NCBI RefSeq assembly: GCF_000271485.2
Contig: NZ_AKVN02000001.1
Coordinates: 1,430,001 to 1,494,000 of the forward strand
Source: Pelosinus fermentans DSM 17108
GTDB lineage: Bacteria; Bacillota; Negativicutes; DSM-13327
Direction of reading: 5' to 3'
Length of the DNA: 64,000 nt
The notes below the pieces were generated by a model. That model had not been told where the DNA came from. It saw only the letters and a list, made by a program, of their open reading frames with translations, and ran no database searches. Below, in pieces: positions 1 through 10,904 of the stretch (position 1 is the stretch's first letter; every line of letters starts with the position of its first letter). Made by a program: the position numbers and the translations under genes.

Positions 1-1357
1 CACGCCTTGCGTATGGCGTGTGGATTGAAACAGCAACTTAGCCTTAACAGTAAAAGGCACATATGTCACGCCTTGCGTATGGCGTGTGGATTGAAACTGC
101 TAAAGGGGGTTAGTGATTGCCTAAACAATGTCACGCCTTGCGTATGGCGTGTGGATTGAAACTATGATTGGTAAACAGAATGTATCAGCTACTAAGTCAC
201 GCCTTGCGTATGGCGTGTGGATTGAAACTTTAACTCGGCAATCTGCTTTGCTACTGAATCAAGTCACGCCTTGCGTATGGCGTGTGGATTGAAACGATCA
301 CCTCTTTGTATCTGCCACAAGTACAATTGTCACGCCTTGCGTATGGCGTGTGGATTGAAACAGCAAGCTCACTATTTGTAAACTGATCCAGCTTGTCACG
401 CCTTGCGTATGGCGTGTGGATTGAAACATTCTTCCAACACCAAACCCGACTAATTTATTTCGTCACGCCTTGCGTATGGCGTGTGGATTGAAACTCATTG
501 GCAGGTATCATTAACGAATAGTCGCCAGTCACGCCTTGCGTATGGCGTGTGGATTGAAACTCTTTGTGACGCTACATCGGCGAGTACTCCAACAGTCACG
601 CCTTGCGTATGGCGTGTGGATTGAAACTACTGTCGTTACTAGCCTAGTTTCTTTGGCTGGGTCACGCCTTGCGTATGGCGTGTGGATTGAAACCATCTTT
701 TTACTTAACCAGCTAAACATCCTCAACAGTCACGCCTTGCGTATGGCGTGTGGATTGAAACATCATCAGCGGGTTTACTACGCTCCCAAATAAAGTCACG
801 CCTTGCGTATGGCGTGTGGATTGAAACAATCACGGTTACATGTGTCATTTTGCGTTGCTTAACGTCACGCCTTGCGTATGGCGTGTGGATTGAAACATCG
901 TCTGGGTTATCAGTGCTTTGGCAGCAATCGTCACGCCTTGCGTATGGCGTGTGGATTGAAACGCAGTACTGCGTGACACAGATTGCCCAGCGGTAGTCAC
1001 GCCTTGCGTATGGCGTGTGGATTGAAACAATGACGTTATCGCTGTTTGTAAAGGTTTAACTGTCACGCCTTGCGTATGGCGTGTGGATTGAAACCGGTAG
1101 TTATGGCTACTGGATTTATCGCGTAGTCTCGTCACGCCTTGCGTATGGCGTGTGGATTGAAACTTGACGATGGACCGCAAATAAAACATTATTTCGTCAC
1201 GCCTTGCGTATGGCGTGTGGATTGAAACTTTGACCACTTAGCCGCCTTTAGTTTCATGGTGGTCACGCCTTGCGTAGGCGTGTGGATTGAAACGCTTTCA
1301 TGATAGCCGCAATCATTGGACTCTGAGTCACGCCTTGCGTAGGCGTATGGATTGAAC
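1..1357 (+). CRISPR. CRISPR array 1, type I-C-like repeats, 5' end cut by the window
   Basis: Twenty-one repeats (the first lacks its leading bases at the window edge) separate 20 spacers of about 32-36 nt. Repeat starts are at 65, 130, 196, 263, 329, 395, 462, 528, 595, 661, 729, 795, 864, 930, 996, 1062, 1131, 1196, 1262 and 1327. Repeats begin GTCACGCC and end GTGGATTGAAAC, as in type I-C. The first 19 are 33 nt with a loop reading GCGTATGG. The last two lack that T (GCGTAGG), and the final one is also degenerate at its 3' end (GTATGGATTGAAC). The degenerate terminal repeat marks the trailer, so the leader lies left of the window and transcription runs rightward. The array is probably served by the type I-C operon at 4815-12932. 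Confidence 0.98.
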
Positions 1358-1437: not shown

Positions 1438-1695
1438 TTAGTCATAATGTCCTCTGCATTGTACGATTTCAATGACTTCATCCTCAACCTTATAGATGAG
1501 TCGATGTTCAGTGGTAATTCTTCTGCTCCAGTAGCCACTCAAATCATTTTTAAGGGGCTCGGGTTTTCCTATCCCTTCATTGTAGTTACGGTCAATATCC
1601 TTAAGGAGTTCATTGATCTTCTTAAGAACCTTTTTATCAGTAGACTGCCAGTAAAGGTAATCATCCCATGCGTTATCCGAGAAAATCTTATTCAT
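1438..1695 (-). CDS. yoeB: YoeB-type mRNA interferase toxin
   Basis: The 85-aa protein has the length and pattern of the Txe/YoeB family, ribosome-dependent endoribonucleases that cut mRNA in the A site. It starts with a W-rich helix (NAWDDYLYWQ) and ends RGHYD, which carries the conserved His-Tyr pair of YoeB. The arginines of SRRITTEHRLIY match the family's catalytic region. The start codon overlaps the upstream antitoxin gene by 8 nt, so the two are translationally coupled. The toxin looks intact. It lies between a CRISPR array and the cas operon. Confidence 0.93.
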   Translation of the reverse strand: MNKIFSDNAWDDYLYWQSTDKKVLKKINELLKDIDRNYNEGIGKPEPLKNDLSGYWSRRITTEHRLIYKVEDEVIEIVQCRGHYD

Positions 1696-1945
1696 CCTCT
1701 ATAAGTTCCCTGATTTTACCTTTACCAGCCTTTAATTGGGCAATGGACTCCAGAAGTCTGTCATAGGTCTTCTTATTGCTTCTGATATAAAGATTTTCCA
1801 TAAGATTGTTATACTCATCCTCTGAGATCATAACGACATTTCCACCTTGTTTGCGGGTGATAATAATCGTTTCAAAGTCATTATTTGCTATATCACAATA
1901 CGTTTTAAGGTTTTCCCGGACATTAGAGTAATTTACTGCTAACAT
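1688..1945 (-). CDS. yefM: YefM/Phd-family antitoxin
   Basis: An 85-aa Phd/YefM antitoxin. The N-terminal part (MLAVNYSNVRENL) is the DNA-binding Phd fold, followed by the family motif TRKQGGNVVMISEDEYNNLMENLYI. The C-terminal tail, rich in K and E, is the expected toxin-neutralising segment. I chose the ATG at 1945 because AGGAGG lies 8 nt upstream; a GTG nine bases further up overlaps that site. The protein should neutralise YoeB and repress its own promoter. Confidence 0.93.
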   Translation of the reverse strand: MLAVNYSNVRENLKTYCDIANNDFETIIITRKQGGNVVMISEDEYNNLMENLYIRSNKKTYDRLLESIAQLKAGKGKIRELIEDE

Positions 1946-1953
1946 AATAAACA

Positions 1954-1977
1954 CCTCCTGTACTATATATTGTACAA
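1954..1977 (-). promoter_or_regulatory. Candidate YefM operator
   Basis: The region just upstream of yefM contains TGTACT and, 13 bases on, the palindrome TGTACA (1971-1976). TGTACA is the known core recognised by YefM-YoeB in enterobacteria, where two repeats lie over the promoter. Autoregulation here is inferred from that resemblance. Confidence 0.5.
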
Positions 1978-2021
1978 CTTAATAGTATATTATGCAAGTT
2001 ATTTAATTTTGTTGTCTGCAT

Positions 2022-2058
2022 AAAAATAGGATTCGCATTTTAGCGAATCCTATTTTTA
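2022..2058. terminator. Bidirectional terminator between yefM and the XRE gene
   Basis: Inverted repeat AATAGGATTCGC / GCGAATCCTATT with A-rich 5' and T-rich 3' flanks, able to terminate in both directions. It ends the minus-strand XRE gene. Confidence 0.85.
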
Positions 2059-2088
2059 TAATCACTCTATGTATTGATGCGAAATAAA

Positions 2089-2319
2089 CTACTTCCTATC
2101 AGGATTATCTGATCTTCCCACGAGATAATCAAGGGAAACGTCGAAGTAGTCGGCGAGGGCAACAAGAGTATCGGCAGAAGGAATATTAAGGCTTGTTTCA
2201 AATTGTCCAATAGAGCCTTTGTTCTTTAAACCAACAGCTTGGGCTAGTGCTTGCATAGATAATTTTTTTTCTGTTCGAAGTTGCTTTAATCTGTACGAAA
2301 AAAGTTCTCTGTTTAGCAT
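2089..2319 (-). CDS. XRE-family helix-turn-helix regulator
   Basis: A 76-aa single-domain Cro/C1-type protein. RLKQLRTEKKLSMQALAQAVGLKNKGSIGQFETSLNIPSADTLVALADYFDVSLDYLVGR is the typical HTH_3 sequence, with the recognition helix around KGSIGQFE. An AGAGG ribosome site precedes the ATG by about 8 nt. There is no sensor or peptidase domain, so it is a simple DNA-binding repressor. Paired 17-bp operators upstream suggest autoregulation. It could belong to a decayed prophage or a restriction/TA control unit; no partner gene is adjacent. Confidence 0.9.
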   Translation of the reverse strand: MLNRELFSYRLKQLRTEKKLSMQALAQAVGLKNKGSIGQFETSLNIPSADTLVALADYFDVSLDYLVGRSDNPDRK

Positions 2320-2335
2320 AATAAAACCTCTTGAC

Positions 2336-2388
2336 GTTTATTATAATTAAACGTATACTTTAAATTAAGTAGTTTAATTATAATAAAC
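2336..2388. promoter_or_regulatory. Two inverted 17-bp operators upstream of the XRE gene
   Basis: GTTTATTATAATTAAAC (2336-2352) and its exact reverse complement (2372-2388) lie 36 bp apart. Each is itself nearly palindromic (GTTTA...TAAAC). Perfect duplication in an AT-rich gap beside an XRE gene is what a dimeric repressor's operators look like. They could control the XRE gene and also transcription toward 2582. Confidence 0.7.
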
Positions 2389-2581
2389 CTTATATTTCTA
2401 TATACAAGATGAAGATCATTAACGTACGCAGTAAGATTGAATTTATATAGATTTAATTATACCTGATATTGCAAAGAGTTCCTAGTCACATTTAAAAATG
2501 GTTATATGAGACTGTTTACTATAATGCCTGTTAGTATAGAAATCTGGTGATTAATAACCAATAATAGTGGAGGGATTTACG

Positions 2582-2875
2582 ATGGTAAAAAGTATATTCG
2601 ATATACTGGTGACTGCTAGCGAGATGGAGAGTTTAGATGGCCTAGACTTGGAGAAAGTTTCTAGTGATTATTATCATGCCTATCAAAGAATGCTTAAATA
2701 CCAGACACAAATTAAGCATGCATTGCCAGCAGAGATGCAGAAGATATTAATGGAACTGGATGATGAATATACTTGTATGCAGATAAGTAGTGGGGATGTA
2801 TATTACCGTCAAGGATTTTCTGACGCAATGCGCTTGATAATGCAGACTTTAACATGGGGACCAGCAAGAAGTTGA
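2582..2875 (+). CDS. Small hypothetical protein
   Basis: A 97-aa acidic protein, not firmly recognised. I chose the ATG at 2582 because GGAGGG lies 6 nt upstream; an in-frame GTG at 2567 has no such site. It begins MVKSIFDILVTASEM and contains the helical segment YRQGFSDAMRLIMQTL near the end. This broadly resembles small Firmicutes/phage proteins of the DUF6809 type, with an N-terminal IFD motif and a C-terminal 'Y..GF..G.RLM' helix. No catalytic residues or membrane segments are visible. Confidence 0.65.
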   Translation: MVKSIFDILVTASEMESLDGLDLEKVSSDYYHAYQRMLKYQTQIKHALPAEMQKILMELDDEYTCMQISSGDVYYRQGFSDAMRLIMQTLTWGPARS

Positions 2876-2956
2876 TATACGAAATAACAAAGGGCATAAC
2901 TAAGTTGTTTCAAATATCATGTTGGGATATAATGGTATTGTAAACGGATTAGTAAA

Positions 2957-3802
2957 ATGATTTTTGTAAGGGAAGAGTCTAAGGCTATTTCATCTTTAAC
3001 GTATGAAGAATTGAATAAGATTAGTATAATAGTTGAGCAGTTTGGGAGGAGTGTTGGCGTGGACTATTCCTTGTTATTACAAACAATAGACGAGAAAAAA
3101 GCGATCTTAGATGGTAAGAAACCCTTTCCATACCATACGCTAAAAAGCCTTAGGGAAAAGTTATTAGTGGAATGGACATATCATTCTAATGCTATTGAAG
3201 GCAATACTCTTACTTTGTCAGAAACAAAGGTGGTTTTAGAGGGAATAACCATTGGTGGGAAAACACTGCATGAGCATCTTGAAGTAATCAACCACAAAGA
3301 CGCCATTCACTATATAGAAGAAATTATAGCAAATCATGAAACTTTATCAGAATGGCAGATTAAAAATATTCACTCCCTGATATTAAAGGGAATAATGCCT
3401 GGAAATGCGGGCGTTTACCGCACCGAAAATGTATTCATAAGCGGTGCCGAGCATATTCCGCCTGCATTTGTACAAGTACCTGAGCAAATGACCCAACTAA
3501 TGGAGTGGTATGCAGGAGAAGGTCAAACATTACATGTAGTGGAAAGGGCTGCTGTTTTACATAGTGAATTTGTAAAAATACATCCATTTGTAGATGGAAA
3601 TGGTCGTACAGCAAGACTATTATTGAACTTCGAACTAATGAAACATGGCTACGTGCCAATCGTCATAAAGAAAGAGCAAAGGTTAGAATATTATAATGCT
3701 CTTGATCATTCCCATATTAAAGGGGAATATGATGTATTTATAAAATTGGTGGCTGGAATTTTGGAAGGTACTTTGGGTTTTTATATACGGCACATTAAGT
3801 AG
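2957..3802 (+). CDS. Fic-domain protein, class II, probable AMP-transferase
   Basis: A 281-aa Fic protein. The Fic active-site motif HPFVDGNGRTAR is intact around residues 210-221, with His as the catalytic base. An inhibitory motif SNAIEGN lies upstream at about residue 78, which makes it class II: the Glu blocks ATP until displaced. Proteins of this type transfer AMP to a hydroxyl of a target protein. No antitoxin gene is needed, because inhibition is in cis. The start is uncertain because no good ribosome site precedes the ATG at 2957. The flanking genes fit an accessory island; the target is unknown. Confidence 0.92.
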   Translation: MIFVREESKAISSLTYEELNKISIIVEQFGRSVGVDYSLLLQTIDEKKAILDGKKPFPYHTLKSLREKLLVEWTYHSNAIEGNTLTLSETKVVLEGITIGGKTLHEHLEVINHKDAIHYIEEIIANHETLSEWQIKNIHSLILKGIMPGNAGVYRTENVFISGAEHIPPAFVQVPEQMTQLMEWYAGEGQTLHVVERAAVLHSEFVKIHPFVDGNGRTARLLLNFELMKHGYVPIVIKKEQRLEYYNALDHSHIKGEYDVFIKLVAGILEGTLGFYIRHIK

Positions 3803-3881: not shown

Positions 3882-3938
3882 GGTAAGTTAATTGACATTC
3901 CACTTACCATATGTTAATATTTACCATGTGGTAAGTGG
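3882..3938 (+). promoter_or_regulatory. Promoter with three GGTAAGT half-sites, driving the mini-CRISPR RNA
   Basis: TTGACA (3892-3897) and TAATAT (3915-3920) are separated by 17 bp, close to the sigma-70 consensus, so transcription should start near 3927. A perfect 10-bp inverted repeat, CCACTTACCA (3900-3909) and TGGTAAGTGG (3929-3938), brackets the -10 box. A third GGTAAGT lies at 3882-3888, upstream of the -35 box. The left arm lies outside the predicted transcript, so this is more likely a DNA operator than an RNA hairpin. The binding protein is unknown. A very small ORF (3835-3891, 18 codons) just upstream is weakly supported and not annotated. Confidence 0.7.
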
Positions 3939-4053
3939 AGGTAGAAATATCCTTGTGATGTTGTCGCGCATTTGCGTGTGGATTGAAATTATAGTTAATA
4001 TATTGTATAGCGTTTATTCTTGCTAGCGCCTCATATAGAGGCGTAATTTTTTT
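3927..4053 (+). ncRNA. Degenerate mini-CRISPR, crRNA-like regulatory RNA (CreA/CreR-like candidate)
   Basis: After the promoter at 3892-3920 comes a 27-nt pseudo-repeat (3963-3989) that keeps the CRISPR 3' handle GTGTGGATTGAAA. It still folds (CGCGC / GCGTG, loop ATTT), so Cas5 could process it. A 33-nt pseudo-spacer follows (3990-4022). The next bases, CGCCT...AGGCGT, match the stem of the array repeat CGCCT...AGGCGT. This second repeat remnant now ends in a T run and serves as terminator. The pseudo-spacer starts TATAGTTAATATATTGTAT and matches 4071-4089 at 18 of 19 positions. Gene order and partial matching resemble published CreA and CreR RNAs that guide Cascade to repress a promoter. No function is shown here; the RNA ends are predicted. 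Confidence 0.7.
4027..4053 (+). terminator. Terminator derived from a second repeat remnant
   Basis: CGCCTC (4027-4032), loop ATATA, GAGGCG (4038-4043), then TAA and seven T. The stem shares CGCCT...AGGCGT with the array repeats, so it may be a repeat whose 3' half was lost. Confidence 0.85.
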
Positions 4054-4070
4054 ATGTTATAAAAACCTTT

Positions 4071-4089
4071 TATAGATAATATATTGTAT
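4071..4089 (+). promoter_or_regulatory. Self-target of the pseudo-spacer
   Basis: TATAGATAATATATTGTAT matches the first 19 bases of the pseudo-spacer at 3990-4008 with one difference, at position 6. The preceding triplet is TTT (4068-4070), close to the usual type I-C PAM TTC. The region is AT-rich with several -10-like hexamers (TAATAT 4077-4082, TAATAA 4090-4095). It lies about 30 bp upstream of a strong Shine-Dalgarno sequence, so it is probably promoter DNA for the transcript that follows. No convincing -35 box could be fixed by eye. Confidence 0.65.
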
Positions 4090-4111
4090 TAATAATAGAA
4101 TTAAAAATAAA

Positions 4112-4141
4112 AGGAGGGATGGATTAGACTATAGAAGAAGA
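4112..4141 (+). other. Strong Shine-Dalgarno with a two-codon ORF and tandem AGA triplets (CreT-like candidate)
   Basis: AGGAGGG (4112-4118) is followed at once by ATG GAT TAG (4119-4127). Three consecutive AGA triplets follow at 4133-4141, in the +2 frame. Known CreT toxins are tiny RNAs with a strong ribosome site followed by a start and rare codons, sequestering a tRNA. The layout is similar, but the ATG lies only 1-2 nt from the ribosome site and the AGA run is out of frame with it. The resemblance is therefore partial and the function is a hypothesis. Confidence 0.35.
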
Positions 4142-4177
4142 ATTCCGAATATCTCTTTAATTAAGATTATAACTAAT

Positions 4178-4255
4178 ATGATAAAAAAGTATGGAGCTGG
4201 TTATAGTGCTTTACTTCTTTTTTTTAGTGATAAGGCGAAACGAATAGTTACATAA
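4178..4255 (+). CDS. Possible small peptide, 25 aa
   Basis: MIKKYGAGYSALLLFFSDKA followed by KRIVT. The frame is open upstream to the strong ribosome site near 4115, but no normal start codon exists there, and the ATG at 4178 has no Shine-Dalgarno sequence. The hydrophobic centre (ALLLFF) flanked by lysines resembles small membrane-active peptides. It ends 13 bp before the next gene. It may equally be non-coding. Confidence 0.25.
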   Translation: MIKKYGAGYSALLLFFSDKAKRIVT

Positions 4256-4268
4256 AAGAGGTGTTTTA

Positions 4269-4550
4269 ATGCAAAAGCTTACTGGAAAATATAAAAAGAT
4301 TACAGCAATCAAAAGAGTAAATGAAAACAATACATTTTCTATTAAAGTAACGCAAGAATCATTTTTGAAGTTCCCTAGGATTTATGATTTTATAGATACA
4401 CTAAGTGGATATATCTATAAAATATTTTTAAATGGGAATTTGCTGAGCAAGAATAATCATGAGCTAAGCAAATTAAATAAAGAAAATATGGATTTGAAAG
4501 CCGAGAATTCCATGTTGAAAAAAATAACAGTTCACTATTTAGAAAAATAA
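4269..4550 (+). CDS. Unknown 93-aa protein between the mini-CRISPR and cas3
   Basis: Not recognised. GAGGTG lies 5 nt before the ATG. The N-terminal half is basic and beta-like (GKYKKITAIKRVNENNTFSIKV). Residues 32-52 are hydrophobic and aromatic. Residues 58-86 form a leucine-zipper-like coiled coil (HELSKLNKENMDLKAENSML), suggesting dimerisation. It lies downstream of the pseudo-spacer target and is closed off from cas3 by a terminator. It may therefore be the gene the crRNA-like RNA controls. A regulator, toxin or Cas-accessory role are all open. Confidence 0.6.
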   Translation: MQKLTGKYKKITAIKRVNENNTFSIKVTQESFLKFPRIYDFIDTLSGYIYKIFLNGNLLSKNNHELSKLNKENMDLKAENSMLKKITVHYLEK

Positions 4551-4632
4551 AAATTAACTTTTTAATGGAGAACGTCTAATGTAATTGGAATTGGTCTTAA
4601 CTTAAATTTAAGTGTATATAGTAATTGAAATA

Positions 4633-4677
4633 AAAATCCTGCAGCGTAATAGAATCTACTGCAGGATTTTGTATTTT
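4633..4677 (+). terminator. Terminator separating the 93-aa gene from cas3
   Basis: Perfect 12-bp stem AAAATCCTGCAG (4633-4644) / CTGCAGGATTTT (4659-4670) followed by a T-rich tract. It implies that the cas operon has its own promoter in 4678-4800, which I could not place with confidence. Confidence 0.9.
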
Positions 4678-4814
4678 AATGGTAAATAAAGAAGTAATAG
4701 GTATTTCATATTATAAATCTTAAAGAATTATCTTAAGTTACAAAGCTAATATAAATAATGAGATCTTTTAAATATACTGCTTAATTTGATGAAAGGAGAG
4801 TAACTAAAATAATT

Positions 4815-7355
4815 ATGGATGATTATGAAACTAATGTAAACCTTGAAGGAATTCCTTTAAAGTTGATTTTTGTAGCACATGTTAGAGACTTGGACAAAAA
4901 AGTTCAAACATTGTGGGATCACTTGAGAGAAGTTTCGTATTTAACAGGTCAGTTTACAGAGAAGATAGGGCTTCGAAAACATGGAGAACTAATAGGATTA
5001 TTGCATGATATTGGAAAGGCAAGCAGGGAATTTAATCAATATATTCGATCTGCAACAGGGCTTATTGGTCCGAATGACAGTGAATATATTGATCCAAAAG
5101 AAAAACGCGGAAAAATTGATCATGCAAGTGCAGGAGCACAAATAATACATCGTTATTTTTCCAATAAAGGTAGTGAGTATAAGTTTGTACTGCAAATTTT
5201 GTCACTAGCAATTGCATCTCATCACTCTGGCTTAATCGATTGTCTTACTATAGAAGGGAAAGATAACTACTCGAAACGAATGAATAAGATCAATGAAAAA
5301 ACACGATTTAATGAAGTTGTAAAAAATATGGATAATTCGTTAAAACAAAAAATGGACGAATTAATGTTTGATAATGATTTCGCTCCTTGCTTCATTAAAA
5401 AAATGAGATCATTACAGGAAAAAAAAGATTCAGTAGAAACTATTAAATTCAAAGTGGGGTTATTAGCACGATTACTTTTTAGTTGTCTAATTGATGCAGA
5501 TAGACTAAATACGGCAAATTTTGAATTTCCGAAGAATGAAATTTTAAGAAATCAAGGTAATTATGTGGAATGGTCTATTTTAATAGATCGATTAAATATT
5601 CACCTAGCCAAGTTTGAAAAGAATAAAAGCAAATCTGAAAAACAGAAAATAGTTAATTCTTTGCGAACCAGGATTTCTAACGAATGTATGAATTATTCTG
5701 AAGAAAAGAAAGATGTTTATCAACTTACAGTTCCGACCGGTGGTGGAAAAACTTTATCAAGCTTACGTTTTGCATTAAATCATGCAAAAAAACATCAGAT
5801 GGATCGAATTATTTACGTCATACCTTATACCTCAATCATTGATCAGAATGCTGAGACAATAAGAAATATATTGGAAATTGAGCAGGAGGACGGTACTTAT
5901 ATTGGTGATGTGGTATTAGAGCATCATTCTAATTTAACGCCAGAAGAAGAAACTGATCGACAAAAGCTACTCGCAGAGAATTGGGATGCACCGGTCGTTT
6001 TTACAACGATGGTGCAAGTTTTAGAGAGTCTATTCGGTCATGGAACAAGAAACTCTCGGCGAATGCATCAACTTGCGAATGCAGTTCTCATATTTGATGA
6101 AATTCAAACTCTTCCTATTCGATGTGTACATCTTTTTAATATAGCAGTTCGTTTTTTTATACAAGGATGTAATTCGACGGTGGTACTCTGTACTGCAACG
6201 CAGCCTTTATTAGGCAAGGTGAAACCAATTGAAAAAGCATTACAAATTGCACCAAGGCAAGAAATGATGTCTGATGTCTCAAAATTATTTGAGGAATTAA
6301 AAAGAGTGGAAGTTTATGATAAATGTAAACTTGGTGGCTGGACGGAGGATGAAATTGCTAGCCTTGCAAAACAGGAATTAAAATTGACTGGTAGTGTTTT
6401 GATTATAACTAATACCAAAAAAAGTGCGAAAAATCTTTTCAGTTTACTTCAAGATCAACCTAATACCAAAAGATTTCATCTTAGTACAAATATGTGTCCA
6501 ATACACCGTATGGAAGTATTGGATAAGGTAAAAGAGTGTTTAGAAGCGAATATTCCGGTTATCTGTATTAGTACACAACTTATTGAAGCTGGCGTTGATA
6601 TTGACTTTGGTAGTGTTATTCGCTACTTGTCAGGTATTGACTCAATTGCACAGGCTGCCGGACGTTGCAATCGAAATGGGGCAAGATCACAAATTGGGAG
6701 AGTCTTCATCGTCAATCCCAAAAAGGAAAATCTAGATAAGCTACCAGATATTAAAATTGGCGGAAATATTACAACGCGTATACTTGAAGAATTTAAAACT
6801 GATCCAGAGCAGTTTGATAACGATATTATAGGTCCTAAGGCTATAAAACGTTATTATGAATATTATTTTCATGATCGAGCTAAGGAGATGAAATATGAAG
6901 TTGATAGTAAGTCCAGTGTTGGTAGAGCAGATAATTTATTCAATCTGTTATCTGCCAACCAAATATCAGTGCAAGAATATCAAAGAATGAATGACAATGC
7001 TTCTCCTGACTTGGCCTTATGTCAATCATTTATGGCAGCTGCAAAGTCATTTCAGTCAATTGATTCATCTGGGCGAGGTATTATTGTTCCATATAAAGAG
7101 GGAAAGGATATTATTTATGATCTTTGCGCAAGCAATGAATTAGAAAAGCAATATGCTTTATTAAAAAAAGCACAACGTTACTCCATTAATGTATTTTCAT
7201 ATTTATTTGATGAACTTGTGGAAAAAGAAATCATTCATGAAATACAAAAAGGATCAGGAATTTTTTATCTTAATGATCAGTATTACAGCGAAGACTATGG
7301 TATGAGTGACTCATCGGTGAATGAAATGGAAGTTCTTATTTATGGAGGTGTATGA
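4815..7355 (+). CDS. cas3: Cas3 helicase-nuclease, type I-C
   Basis: 846 aa, full length for Cas3. The N-terminal HD nuclease carries LLHDIGK (His64-Asp65) and DHASAGA. The SF2 helicase has Walker A PTGGGKT (about residue 307), DEIQ (about 427), [17 protein letters not shown] and [10 protein letters not shown] (about 613). It unwinds and degrades DNA marked by Cascade. It is the first gene of a tightly packed operon. The ATG at 4815 lies 16 nt from the nearest ribosome site (AAAGGAG, 4792-4798). This is too far for efficient use, so initiation may be weak or begin at an ATA/ATT codon between. Confidence 0.98.
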
Positions 7356-8074
7356 TGATGGAAAACAAAGTGCAATTTAAAGTTTATGGGAAATATGCCC
7401 TTTTCACAGATCCATTGACTAAAATTGGTGGTGAGAAATGTTCTTATCAAATACCAACTTATCAGGCGTTAAAAGGCATTATGGAGTCGGTGTACTGGAA
7501 GCCGACCATTGTGTGGATAATTGATAAAGTAAGAATTATGAAGTCAATACGAACGCAAACTCGTAGCGCTAAACCTATTAATTATGGTGGAGGAAATTCT
7601 TTAGCGATTTATACTTATCTTTCTGATGTAGAATATCAAGTTCAAGCTCACTTTGAGTGGAATCTGAATCGAGAAGATATGGTAAAAGATCGGAATGAGA
7701 ACAAGCACTTCTTTGTAGCAAAGAGGATGATTGAGCGTGGGGGGCGAAGAGATATTTTTCTTGGTACACGTGAGTGCCAGGGATATGTGGAAAGTTGTGA
7801 TTTCGGTGAAGGTGAAGGATTTTATGATTCTTATGGGGAGTTAGCTTTTGACCTAATGTTCCATGGCTTCGATTATCCTGATGAGCTAGGTGAAAATAAG
7901 CTTCAAGCAAGATTCTGGCGACCTAAACTAGTAAATGGTATTGTGGAATTTAATCGTCCAGAAGAATGTATTAATAAGTTTGTGAAACTAATGATGGCAG
8001 CCCCTCCTATTTCTATTGGATTGCAAGAGGAGGGTATTTTGGAAGGGTATTCCCAAGAGGAGGCTTTGCAATGA
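7352..8074 (+). CDS. cas5c: Cas5 (Cas5d/Cas5c) crRNA-processing subunit
   Basis: About 240 aa. In type I-C, Cas5 replaces Cas6: it cuts pre-crRNA at the base of the repeat hairpin and stays bound to the 5' handle in Cascade. The sequence ([44 protein letters not shown]) is the Cas5d N-terminal RAMP fold. ATG codons at 7352, 7355 and 7358 are in frame. GGAGG at 7343-7347 favours 7355 or 7358. The gene overlaps cas3 by 4 nt. Confidence 0.97.
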
Positions 8075-10002
8075 GTTGGATGCAAAAGCTTTATGAAACT
8101 TACGAAAATTGTGCAAGTGCGAAAGACACATCCCTGTTGTCAATCTGCCATACAACACAAAAGGCTCAAATTGAAATTATTATTGATAATGCGGGGAATT
8201 TTAATAGGGCGAGAGTAATTGCAAAAGATCAAGCGCGAACGATTATTCCTTGCACGGAAAGCTCAGGTGGAAGGGCTGGAATAAAACCAGAAGCTCATCC
8301 TCTTTGTGATAAACTGCAATATCTTGCTGGAGATTTCGCTATATATGGCGGAGAAGTAACGAAAGGCTATGCCAAAAATCCTACGGAACCATATGAAAAA
8401 TATACAGAACTTTTGCAGCAGTGGTGTGATTCGGAATTTACTCATCCAAAAGCAAAAGCAGTTTTTGAATATGTTAAAAAAGGTAATTTAATAAAAGATT
8501 TGGTTGAGAGTAAAGTGTTATTTTTAGATGATAATAAAAAACTTTTAAAAGAGTGGAGAGGGGATACCAAGCAAGAAGTTCCAGAGATTTTTAAGGTTAC
8601 CCAAAATTCAATACAAGGAGATGCTTTTGCACGATGGATAATTGAAATACCTACCGATCCGCAAAGCGCAGTCTGGACAGATGAAAGCTTATTTGACAGT
8701 TGGACGAGGTTTTATTTATCAACCAAAAAAACTAGTGGGTTGTGTTTGGTTACTGGGGTGAACATAGCTTTGTCTGATCAGCATCCAGCTAAAATAAGAA
8801 ATGATGGAGATAAAGCAAAATTAATTTCCTCCAATGATATAAGCGGTTTTACCTTTCGGGGGCGTTTCTTATCTGCTGAACAAGCATGTGGTGTTGGATT
8901 TGAAGTAACGCAAAAAGCACATAATGCTTTGCGATGGCTTATTAATCGCCAAGGGTATAGGCGAGGAGATTTAGCAATAGTGGCATGGTCAACTGTTGGA
9001 AAAAAAATTATTGATCCTCTGGCTGATCCCTATTCTATATTCAATATTGATGAAATGGAAAGTGATTCGGAGATTTTAGCTGCAACTACTCAGGAATTAG
9101 CGATCAAGCTAAATAAGAAGATTGCTGGTTATCAAGGAGAAATCGGAAATACAGCAGGAGTTGTTGTCATGGGACTTGACTCTGCAACTCCTGGCAGGAT
9201 GGCTATGACATTTTACCGGGAACTTACTGATTCTGATTTTTTACATAGAATTGAGGATTGGCATAAGTCATGTTGCTGGATTCATAATTATCATTCGAAA
9301 GAGATTATTGATAAAAAAACAGGAAAAAAGCAAAAAATCAAGGTTCGACTTGTTGGTGCTCCTACTCCCAATGATATTGTAGAAGCGGCTTATGGAAGTA
9401 AGGTAGATGATAAATTACGTAAGACAACTGTAATGCGTATCCTCCCTTGTATTATTGACGGAGAGAAGATTCCAAGAGATTTAGTAGAATCTGTGGTTAG
9501 GCGTGCCATAAATAGGGGAGCGATGGAAGCGTGGGAGTGGAATAAAACCCTCAGCATAGCTTGTGCGCTTTATCGAAAATATCAAGAGAAGGAGAATTAT
9601 GAGATGGCTTTAGATGAAAAACGAGCAAAAAGAGATTATTTATATGGCAGATTGTTAGCCTTAGCTGATGGCTTAGAAGAGTGGGCATTAAGACAAGGAG
9701 GGGAAAATCGTCAAACCAATGCAGCTAGGTTGATGCAACGATTTGCGGATCATCCTTTTACAACGTGGCCTACTATTGAACTTGCGTTACTGCCTTATAA
9801 AGCTCGATTAGGGAAAAAAACTGCAAAAATTGAAGGATTAATATCAAAAGTTACGGCGATGTTTGAACCCGATGATTTTATAAGCGATAAAAAACTAAGC
9901 GGCGAATTTTTACTAGGATATCATTGCCAGCGAGAAGCAAGATGGTATGAAAAAAGTATAGACAAGGAAATTATATCAGAAATAGAGGAGGAAATAGTAT
10001 GA
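8071..10002 (+). CDS. cas8c: Cas8c (Csd1) large subunit of type I-C Cascade
   Basis: 643 aa, within the usual Csd1 size. It starts [11 protein letters not shown] with a GAGGAGG site and overlaps the cas5 stop by 4 nt. Cas8c recognises the PAM and recruits Cas3. Conserved Csd1 stretches include a glycine-rich core near residues 70-90 and the MTFYRELT segment. The C-terminal third is also translated separately as Cas11c from an internal start at 9604. Confidence 0.97.
9604..10002 (+). CDS. cas11c: Cas11c small subunit from an internal start within cas8c
   Basis: In frame with cas8c, an ATG at 9604 is preceded by AAGGAG (9589-9594) with 9-nt spacing, which is near ideal. The product would be 132 aa, all helical ([20 protein letters not shown]), fitting known Cas11c subunits that coat the Cascade belly. 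Internal initiation of Cas11 from cas8c is established for type I-C; here it is supported by the ribosome site and length. Confidence 0.85.
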   Translation: MALDEKRAKRDYLYGRLLALADGLEEWALRQGGENRQTNAARLMQRFADHPFTTWPTIELALLPYKARLGKKTAKIEGLISKVTAMFEPDDFISDKKLSGEFLLGYHCQREARWYEKSIDKEIISEIEEEIV

Positions 10003-10904
10003 GAACTTTGGAAAACAAAATTGATTTTGCAGTAGTCATAAATGTAAAAAATGCCAATCCCAATGGAGATCCTTTGAATGGGAACAGACCTCGTACAAAC
10101 TATGATGGATATGGAGAAATATCTGACGTATGCATTAAAAGAAAAATACGAAACCGTTTAATGGAGATGGGAAAAGAATATTCTATTTTTGTTCAGTCAG
10201 ATGACAATAGGGTGGATGGATACAGAAGCCTTCGTGAGAGAGCGGAAGGAGAATTGAAAGATGCTCTTAAAAATGAGGAGAATTTTCGAGAAGAAGCTTG
10301 TAAAAAATGGCTTGATGTTAGAGCCTTCGGACAAGTTTTTGCTTATAGTGGAGGAAAAAAAGGAAAGGGAAAAGCTAAGTCTGAAAGTGGTGAAGAGCCT
10401 GGGGATGACAAAGGTGTTTCCATTGGGATTAGGGGACCAGTTTCGATTCATCCAGCCTTTAGCGTTAGTCCCATAAGTATTTCCAGTATTCAGATTACCA
10501 AGAGTGTTAGTGGTGAAGGAGATGGGAGTAAGCGGGCCTCTGATACTATGGGGATGAAACATCGTGTAGATCATGGAGTATATGTATTTTATGGTAGTAT
10601 AAATCCTCAGTTGGCTTCTAAAACCGGTTTCAATGACGTAGATGCCGAGGTTATCAAGCAAGCATTAAGTGAGTTATTTCAGAATGATGCATCTTCTGCA
10701 AGACCAGAAGGAAGCATGGAAGTCTATCAAGTCTATTGGTGGAGACATGATTCAAAGAATGGACAATATTCGTCTGGAAAGGTTCATCGCTCATTGGAAA
10801 TTGTATTAAAAGATAGTGTGGCAGAAGCAAAGTCAATAGATGACTATAATATTACAATCCATCCGTTGGAAAATTTAGTGCCAGAAATTATTGATGGTAA
10901 ATAA
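9999..10904 (+). CDS. cas7c: Cas7 (Csd2) backbone subunit
   Basis: 301 aa. It begins with the hallmark Csd2 sequence KIDFAVVINVKNANPNGDPLNGNRPR. Multiple Cas7 copies form the crRNA-bound filament in Cascade, and their thumbs flip out every sixth guide base. GAGGAGG precedes the ATG, which overlaps the cas8c stop by 4 nt. Residues about 115-135 form a lysine/glycine-rich loop (GGKKGKGKAKSESGEEP). Confidence 0.97.
   Translation: MRTLENKIDFAVVINVKNANPNGDPLNGNRPRTNYDGYGEISDVCIKRKIRNRLMEMGKEYSIFVQSDDNRVDGYRSLRERAEGELKDALKNEENFREEACKKWLDVRAFGQVFAYSGGKKGKGKAKSESGEEPGDDKGVSIGIRGPVSIHPAFSVSPISISSIQITKSVSGEGDGSKRASDTMGMKHRVDHGVYVFYGSINPQLASKTGFNDVDAEVIKQALSELFQNDASSARPEGSMEVYQVYWWRHDSKNGQYSSGKVHRSLEIVLKDSVAEAKSIDDYNITIHPLENLVPEIIDGK

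What the first reader, a model, noticed from the sequence alone, without database searches (positions are those of the whole stretch)
4112..4260. Possible CreT-like toxin RNA or mini-gene under the pseudo-spacer target
A very strong Shine-Dalgarno is followed by a two-codon ORF (ATG GAT TAG) and then three AGA triplets. A 25-aa hydrophobic frame follows. Mini-genes with strong ribosome sites are known to be toxic through tRNA or peptidyl-tRNA depletion. Being directly downstream of the target, it is the natural thing to repress. If so, loss of Cascade would be harmful and the element would guard the cas operon.
Basis: inference. Interest (0 to 1): 0.75.

Follow-up and report, generated by a model that had tools for sequence, protein, structure and literature searches.

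The report
Leader of a CRISPR-repressed transposase-derived gene
The supposed toxic mini-gene is most likely just the 5' leader of a small gene, derived from part of a jumping gene, that the cell's own CRISPR complex is guided to keep switched off; the guide and its target are real and shared by related bacteria, but the mini-gene itself is not conserved and its start codon sits too close to the ribosome site to work well.

Summary
The letters are there: AAGGAGG at 4111-4117, ATG GAT TAG at 4119-4127, AGA AGA AGA at 4133-4141 and a 25-codon frame at 4178-4252. The toxin reading is not supported. The ATG lies 1 nt after the SD, while this genome mostly uses 4-11. GAT and AGA are common codons. 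The AGAs lie after the stop, in another frame. The RNA has no unusual fold, and the block is not found in relatives. The surrounding module is real. A solitary degenerate repeat carries a pseudo-spacer that matches a site overlapping the promoter (4071-4089). Two other Pelosinus species have the same module with entirely different guides, each matching its own target at all ten seed positions. In all three the repressed gene derives from an IS3-transposase OrfA: 92 aa with intact HTH, 93 aa diverged (window), 61 aa truncated. A conserved hairpin follows, then the cas operon; a fourth species has cas but no module. Most likely 4112-4260 is the leader of a Cascade-repressed, OrfA-derived gene. 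Its strong SD either acts in cis on mRNA stability or is the relic of a lost small ORF. The addiction idea survives only if the OrfA-derived protein is toxic, which is untested.

The parts
3892..3920 (+). promoter of the guide RNA: TTGACA-17-TAATAT, extended -10
   Evidence: 10 of 12 consensus; promoter-like sequence at the same place in G005 and G007 (read by eye)
3963..3989 (+). degenerate solitary repeat (psi-repeat), GTCGCGCATTTGCGTGTGGATTGAAAT
   Evidence: exact GTGTGGATTGAAA of the array repeats at 3976-3988; alignment to the repeat
3990..4025 (+). pseudo-spacer TATAGTTAATATATTGTATAGCG...
   Evidence: 19-nt match to the target broken only at position 6
4026..4044 (+). hairpin of the intrinsic terminator of the guide RNA (T-run follows)
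4068..4089 (+). guide target TATAGATAATATATTGTAT with TTT at the PAM position; overlaps the putative promoter of the repressed unit
4111..4117 (+). strong Shine-Dalgarno AAGGAGG without a usable start codon; proposed cis-acting 30S site or relic
4119..4127 (+). two-codon ORF ATG GAT TAG (the claimed mini-gene); probably not efficiently translated
   Evidence: spacing 1 nt; not conserved
4076..4255 (+). 59-codon open frame with AGA AGA AGA (4133-4141) and the 25-aa ORF (4178-4252); no canonical start at the SD; possible decayed small ORF
   Evidence: no homologs
4269..4550 (+). 93-aa ORF with its own SD, derived from IS3-family transposase OrfA; HTH eroded, C-terminal coiled coil kept; main product of the repressed unit
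4632..4680 (+). conserved terminator-like hairpin AAAAATCCTGCAG...CTGCAGGATTTTGTATTTT between the repressed unit and the cas operon
   Evidence: folding z = -3.6; conserved in G004, G005, G007
4815..10904 (+). type I-C cas3, cas5d, cas8c (Csd1), cas7: the interference genes

Best explanation
A crRNA-like guide (3963-4044) loads the type I-C Cascade and directs it, by partial pairing, to 4071-4089. There it blocks transcription of a short unit running from about 4090-4108 to the hairpin at 4632-4680. That unit encodes a 93-aa protein derived from IS3 transposase OrfA. The flagged block 4112-4260 is the unit's 5' leader, not an independent toxin gene. Its AAGGAGG lacks a start codon at a workable distance and most likely either binds 30S subunits in cis and affects mRNA stability, or is the relic of a small ORF that lost its start. 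Shown by sequence: guide, target, seed coevolution, OrfA descent, conserved hairpin, absence of the block in relatives. Inferred: repression, the leader's role, and any toxicity or regulatory function of the OrfA-derived protein.
For: Guide-target: five further Negativicutes species have a solitary I-C handle whose spacer positions 1-5 and 7-11 all match a nearby site, all with TTC or TTT at the PAM position; shuffled spacers give 0.195 hits per survey, 0.025 with such a PAM. The three Pelosinus guides differ from each other (TATAGTTAATA, TCCAGATGGTA, TCTTCTTGTAT), yet each matches its own target with a mismatch at flipped-out position 6. OrfA descent: HTH_Tnp_1 E=2e-9 in G007; window vs G007 E=2e-9, 30% identity with a single one-codon indel; the G005 remnant aligns to G007 above all 2000 shuffles. 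Coding constraint: dN 0.62, dS 1.67, and 0.12% chance of staying stop-free if neutral. Leader: block absent in G007; G005 also has AAGGAGG with no start codon behind it (L016:2000-2020); spacing statistics; no structure.
Against: No expression data. The -10/-35 of the repressed unit is weak and ambiguous. The window has TTT at the PAM position, while the reported I-C consensus is NTTC (PMC6546366). The 93-aa protein is fast-evolving and has lost the HTH signal, so it may be decaying. The 59-codon frame is longer than expected by chance (P=0.0035), so something may have been encoded in the leader.
Confidence: 0.6

Rival explanations
1. One reading: 4112-4260 is a CreT-like toxic RNA or mini-gene; strong SD plus ATG GAT TAG ties up ribosomes and tRNA when Cascade is lost.
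For: Position directly under the guide target; strong SD; CreT RNAs of other systems have a strong SD and a mini-ORF (PMC8501985, PMC10097628).
Against: SD-ATG spacing 1 nt; GAT is the most used Asp codon (41 per 1000) and AGA is common (9.5 per 1000); AGAs are outside the mini-ORF; no stable hairpin; not conserved; the two-codon minigene of the axe-txe leader was not toxic (PMC8708949).
Confidence: 0.06
2. The OrfA-derived protein is a Cascade-repressed toxin (CrePA-like): losing Cascade, or blocking it with an anti-CRISPR, releases it and arrests the cell. The leader only tunes its expression.
For: Discrete unit with its own guide-targeted promoter, ORF and terminator-like hairpin beside cas in three species; frame kept despite high divergence; protein-toxin modules of this layout exist (CrePA, reviewed in PMC12737573).
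Against: No known toxin fold; the gene is truncated in G005 and has lost its HTH signal in the window, as if decaying; G004 keeps cas without the module.
Confidence: 0.27
3. CreR-like autoregulation: the guided Cascade represses a promoter that also feeds the cas operon by read-through, or represses an OrfA-derived regulator of cas.
For: In two other Negativicutes the same kind of guide targets the cas operon's own promoter: exonuclease-cas3 in G146, cas5 in G120.
Against: In Pelosinus a conserved terminator-like hairpin separates the unit from cas3; G004 has cas directly behind that hairpin without any module.
Confidence: 0.25
4. Compatible with the best explanation, on the SD alone: the strong SD is a STAB-SD-like element or in-cis minigene that stabilises the downstream mRNA by binding 30S subunits.
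For: AAGGAGG near the predicted 5' end with no workable start codon, in the window and in G005; STAB-SD in cry3A does not direct translation and blocks RNase J1 (PMC4113751); the two-codon minigene of axe-txe acts in cis, possibly through stability (PMC8708949).
Against: G007 lacks the extra SD; the transcript 5' end is not mapped.
Confidence: 0.4

Closest known systems
CreTA (CRISPR-regulated toxin-antitoxin RNA pairs, type VIII TA), e.g. Haloarcula hispanica, Halobacterium hubeiense, Acinetobacter I-F
   Same: Degenerate repeat(s) plus pseudo-spacer beside cas; seed match at 1-5 and 7-11 with mismatch tolerated at 6 and 12; target over the promoter of a short gene; strong SD in the repressed transcript.
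   Different: Here no usable start codon at the SD, no tandem rare codons in a mini-ORF, no stable hairpin; the unit continues into a coding ORF; the system is I-C.
CrePA (Cascade-repressed protein toxin, typically KilA-N)
   Same: Guide-repressed protein-coding gene adjacent to cas; gene derived from a mobile-element DNA-binding protein.
   Different: IS3 OrfA derivative rather than KilA-N; toxicity unknown.
CreR (crRNA-like RNA that autorepresses cas operons)
   Same: Same guide anatomy; G146 and G120 in the same class fit it.
   Different: In Pelosinus the target is about 725 nt upstream of cas3 with a terminator-like hairpin in between.
Two-codon minigenes (axe-txe mg2)
   Same: SD plus two-codon ORF in the leader of a short operon.
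   Different: Here the ATG is 1 nt from the SD core; no TA pair shown.
STAB-SD of cry3A
   Same: SD in a 5' leader that does not direct translation.
   Different: Function untested here.

Membership tests
CreTA (type VIII TA) | crRNA-like guide with degenerate repeat and 5' handle sequence | tested here: met
CreTA (type VIII TA) | seed complementarity (1-5, 7-11) to a PAM-flanked site in the promoter of the neighbouring gene | tested here: met
   caveat: TTT at the PAM position in the window (TTC in G005 and G007) and an ambiguous promoter
CreTA (type VIII TA) | toxin RNA with strong SD and an efficient start codon | tested here: not met
   SD-ATG spacing 1 nt; no other canonical start at SD distance
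CreTA (type VIII TA) | consecutive rare codons in the mini-ORF (tRNA-sequestering type) | tested here: not met
   mini-ORF has only GAT; AGA is 9.5 per 1000 and lies outside it
CreTA (type VIII TA) | stable stem-loop needed for toxicity | tested here: not met
   z = 0.23 and 0.37 against shuffles
CreTA (type VIII TA) | toxicity when Cascade is lost | not testable with these tools
   needs experiment; cas without the module exists in G004
CrePA | guide-targeted protein-coding gene next to cas | tested here: met
   architecture only: 93-, 92- and 61-aa OrfA-derived ORFs
CrePA | KilA-N-type toxin domain | tested here: not met
   HTH_Tnp_1 in G007, no family in the window protein
CrePA | protein is toxic on derepression | not testable with these tools
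   needs experiment
CreR | guide target lies in the cas operon's own promoter | tested here: inconclusive
   hairpin between unit and cas3; met in G146 and G120, not evidently in Pelosinus
toxic minigene (peptidyl-tRNA drop-off) | efficient initiation on a 2-5 codon ORF and limiting tRNA for its last sense codon | tested here: not met
   spacing 1 nt; last sense codon GAT is the commonest Asp codon
STAB-SD | 16S-complementary SD in the 5' leader that does not direct translation | tested here: inconclusive
   sequence and spacing fit; lack of translation not measured
STAB-SD | stabilises the downstream mRNA | not testable with these tools
   needs half-life assay
IS3-family OrfA | OrfA HTH plus leucine zipper, followed by OrfB | tested here: not met
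   descent supported, but HTH signal lost in the window, only a long C-terminal helix modelled, no orfB downstream

The most novel reading that the evidence does not exclude
A domesticated IS3 transposase OrfA gene has become the guarded effector of a type I-C CRISPR system: Cascade with a self-guide keeps it silent, and loss or inhibition of Cascade releases it, giving a protein-based guard of CRISPR built from transposon parts, with a leader whose start-less SD tunes its expression.
Probability: 0.25. Interest if true: 0.72.

Novelty: new variant of a known kind. Interest (0 to 1): 0.42.

Why it matters
Self-guides that make Cascade silence a neighbouring gene have been studied in few CRISPR subtypes. 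Three related species with entirely different guide sequences, each tracking its own promoter, are a natural coevolution experiment indicating that guide-directed repression is under selection in type I-C systems. The repressed gene being an eroding transposase OrfA, together with a sister species that lacks the module, makes it directly testable whether such modules are addiction devices, sensors of anti-CRISPRs, or regulators.

Tried and rejected
(1) Toxic two-codon mini-gene: rejected on spacing, codon use and non-conservation. (2) AGA-starvation RNA like H. hispanica CreT: AGAs are not in the mini-ORF and AGA is common here. (3) Hairpin CreT as in Acinetobacter: no structure above shuffles. 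(4) Type I hydrophobic toxin in the 25-aa frame: about 10 hydrophobic residues, no SD, no convincing homologs in relatives, phages or plasmids. (5) Leader as duplicated OrfA or fic DNA: alignments not above shuffles. (6) Known RNA family: nothing at gathering score. (7) A second guide target inside the block near 4168: seed broken at position 5 and no PAM. (8) Structure of the 93-aa protein: two-sequence alignment, pLDDT 72, only a long helix, so uninformative on function. (10) The 85-aa ORF under the G012 target has no relatives in 300 genomes of the class.

Full report
What is there. The window's genome is in the same genus as G004, G005 and G007, whose contigs match Pelosinus fermentans UBA6563, P. 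propionicus DSM 13327 and a Pelosinus MAG by length and content, so it is very probably a Pelosinus. Two type I-C arrays flank cas3-cas5d-cas8c-cas7 and the adaptation genes. Between a fic gene and cas3 lies a solitary degenerate repeat ending in GTGTGGATTGAAAT (3963-3989), a pseudo-spacer from 3990, and a terminator hairpin at 4026-4044, behind a good promoter at 3892-3920. The pseudo-spacer matches 4071-4089 over 19 nt except at position 6. In the H. hubeiense CreTA module, positions 1-5 and 7-11 were shown to be critical, while 6 and 12 were free (PMC8501985).

The flagged block. The SD AAGGAGG is at 4111-4117 and the ATG at 4119-4121, one nucleotide after the SD core. In 424 kb of this genome, 59 of 63 AGGAGG-led ORFs use a spacing of 4-11, so the two-codon ORF should start poorly. 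Its only elongator codon, GAT, is the commonest Asp codon, and AGA is the second most used Arg codon. The AGA AGA AGA run (4133-4141) is in the same frame as the 25-aa ORF. That frame is open for 59 codons (0.35% of shuffles), stands in register with the SD only at a TTA codon (4124), and ends 13 nt before the next ORF, whose own SD lies in the gap. The block may therefore once have held a small ORF that lost its start, but no convincing relative of it was found in 100 related genomes, phages or plasmids. The RNA folds no better than shuffles.

The repressed unit. The ORF at 4269-4550 (93 aa) is related to IS3-family OrfA proteins. In a Pelosinus MAG (G007) the orthologous locus has fic, repeat, pseudo-spacer, terminator, a TTC-flanked target, an OrfA-like 92-aa ORF with an intact HTH_Tnp_1 domain, the same terminator-like hairpin, and then cas3-cas5-cas8c; the flagged block is missing. 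In P. propionicus (G005) the same order holds with a third guide sequence, an AAGGAGG without start codon, and a 61-aa remnant of the OrfA frame. In G004 the module is absent: fic is followed by the hairpin and cas3. The window protein keeps the frame with one single-codon indel against G007 (dN 0.62, dS 1.67; neutral chance of no stop 0.12%), but its HTH signal is gone and only a long C-terminal helix is modelled. The gene thus looks constrained but eroding.

How general it is. Among the Negativicutes I-C loci collected, five species besides the window have a solitary handle whose spacer matches a nearby site at all ten seed positions, each with TTC or TTT at the PAM position; shuffled spacers give 0.195 such hits per survey and 0.025 with a PAM. 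In G146 and G120 the target is the promoter of the cas operon itself, which fits CreR. In G012 it precedes a unique 85-aa ORF upstream of the guide.

Mechanism. Best supported: the guide directs Cascade to the promoter of the OrfA-derived unit and silences it; the flagged block is this unit's leader. Guide, target and their coevolution are shown by sequence. Repression itself is inferred from the known CreTA, CrePA and CreR systems (PMC8501985, PMC10097628, PMC12737573). What the start-less SD does is inferred: STAB-SD elements bind 30S subunits without translation and block 5' decay (PMC4113751), and a two-codon minigene in the axe-txe leader acts in cis and is not toxic (PMC8708949). Whether the OrfA-derived protein is a toxin, a regulator or a relic is open.

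Verdict. As a whole the module is a new variant of a known kind.

Noticed in passing
L016:1898-1932 (P. propionicus, G005): The guide's terminator is itself a degenerate second CRISPR repeat (GTCGCGCCTTATTTAGGCGTGTGGATTTTTT) whose 3' end became a T-run: a snapshot of a repeat turning into a terminator.
   Followed up: partly
window 3899-3939: Inverted repeat with 19-nt arms (89% complementary, 3-nt gap) overlapping the -10 of the guide promoter; G005 and G007 have GTAAAATTTTAC palindromes there. Possible operator controlling the guide RNA.
   Followed up: no
L113:439-456 (own genome, contig 1 near 200138): An exact 18-nt copy of the start of the pseudo-spacer (TATAGTTAATATATTGTA) at the 3' end of an ORF, with ATA at the PAM position; meaning unknown.
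   Followed up: partly
window 4700-4815 and cas3: fic (about 92% identical) and the hairpin are conserved with other Pelosinus, but cas3 is only 40% identical: the cas operon was apparently exchanged next to a retained guide module.
   Followed up: partly
window 4660-4705; L002, L003, L004, L006: The motif GCAGGATTTTGTATT..ATGGTAAATAAAG..AATAGG behind the hairpin recurs at several places in the genome.
   Followed up: partly
window 1-1235 versus 13097 onward: The two arrays use slightly different repeats (GCGTATGGCG versus GCGTAGGCG); the last two repeats of array 1 are of the second type.
   Followed up: no
L034:71-428 (G012): A guide located downstream targets a TTT-flanked site before a unique 85-aa ORF: a second type of CRISPR-targeted small gene.
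   Followed up: partly
L042 (G146) and L045 (G120): Solitary I-C guides whose targets lie in the cas operon's own promoter: likely CreR-type autoregulation in Negativicutes.
   Followed up: partly
window 1438-3802: YoeB-like toxin, Phd/YefM antitoxin, HTH regulator, DUF6809-like protein and Fic protein between array 1 and the cas locus.
   Followed up: no
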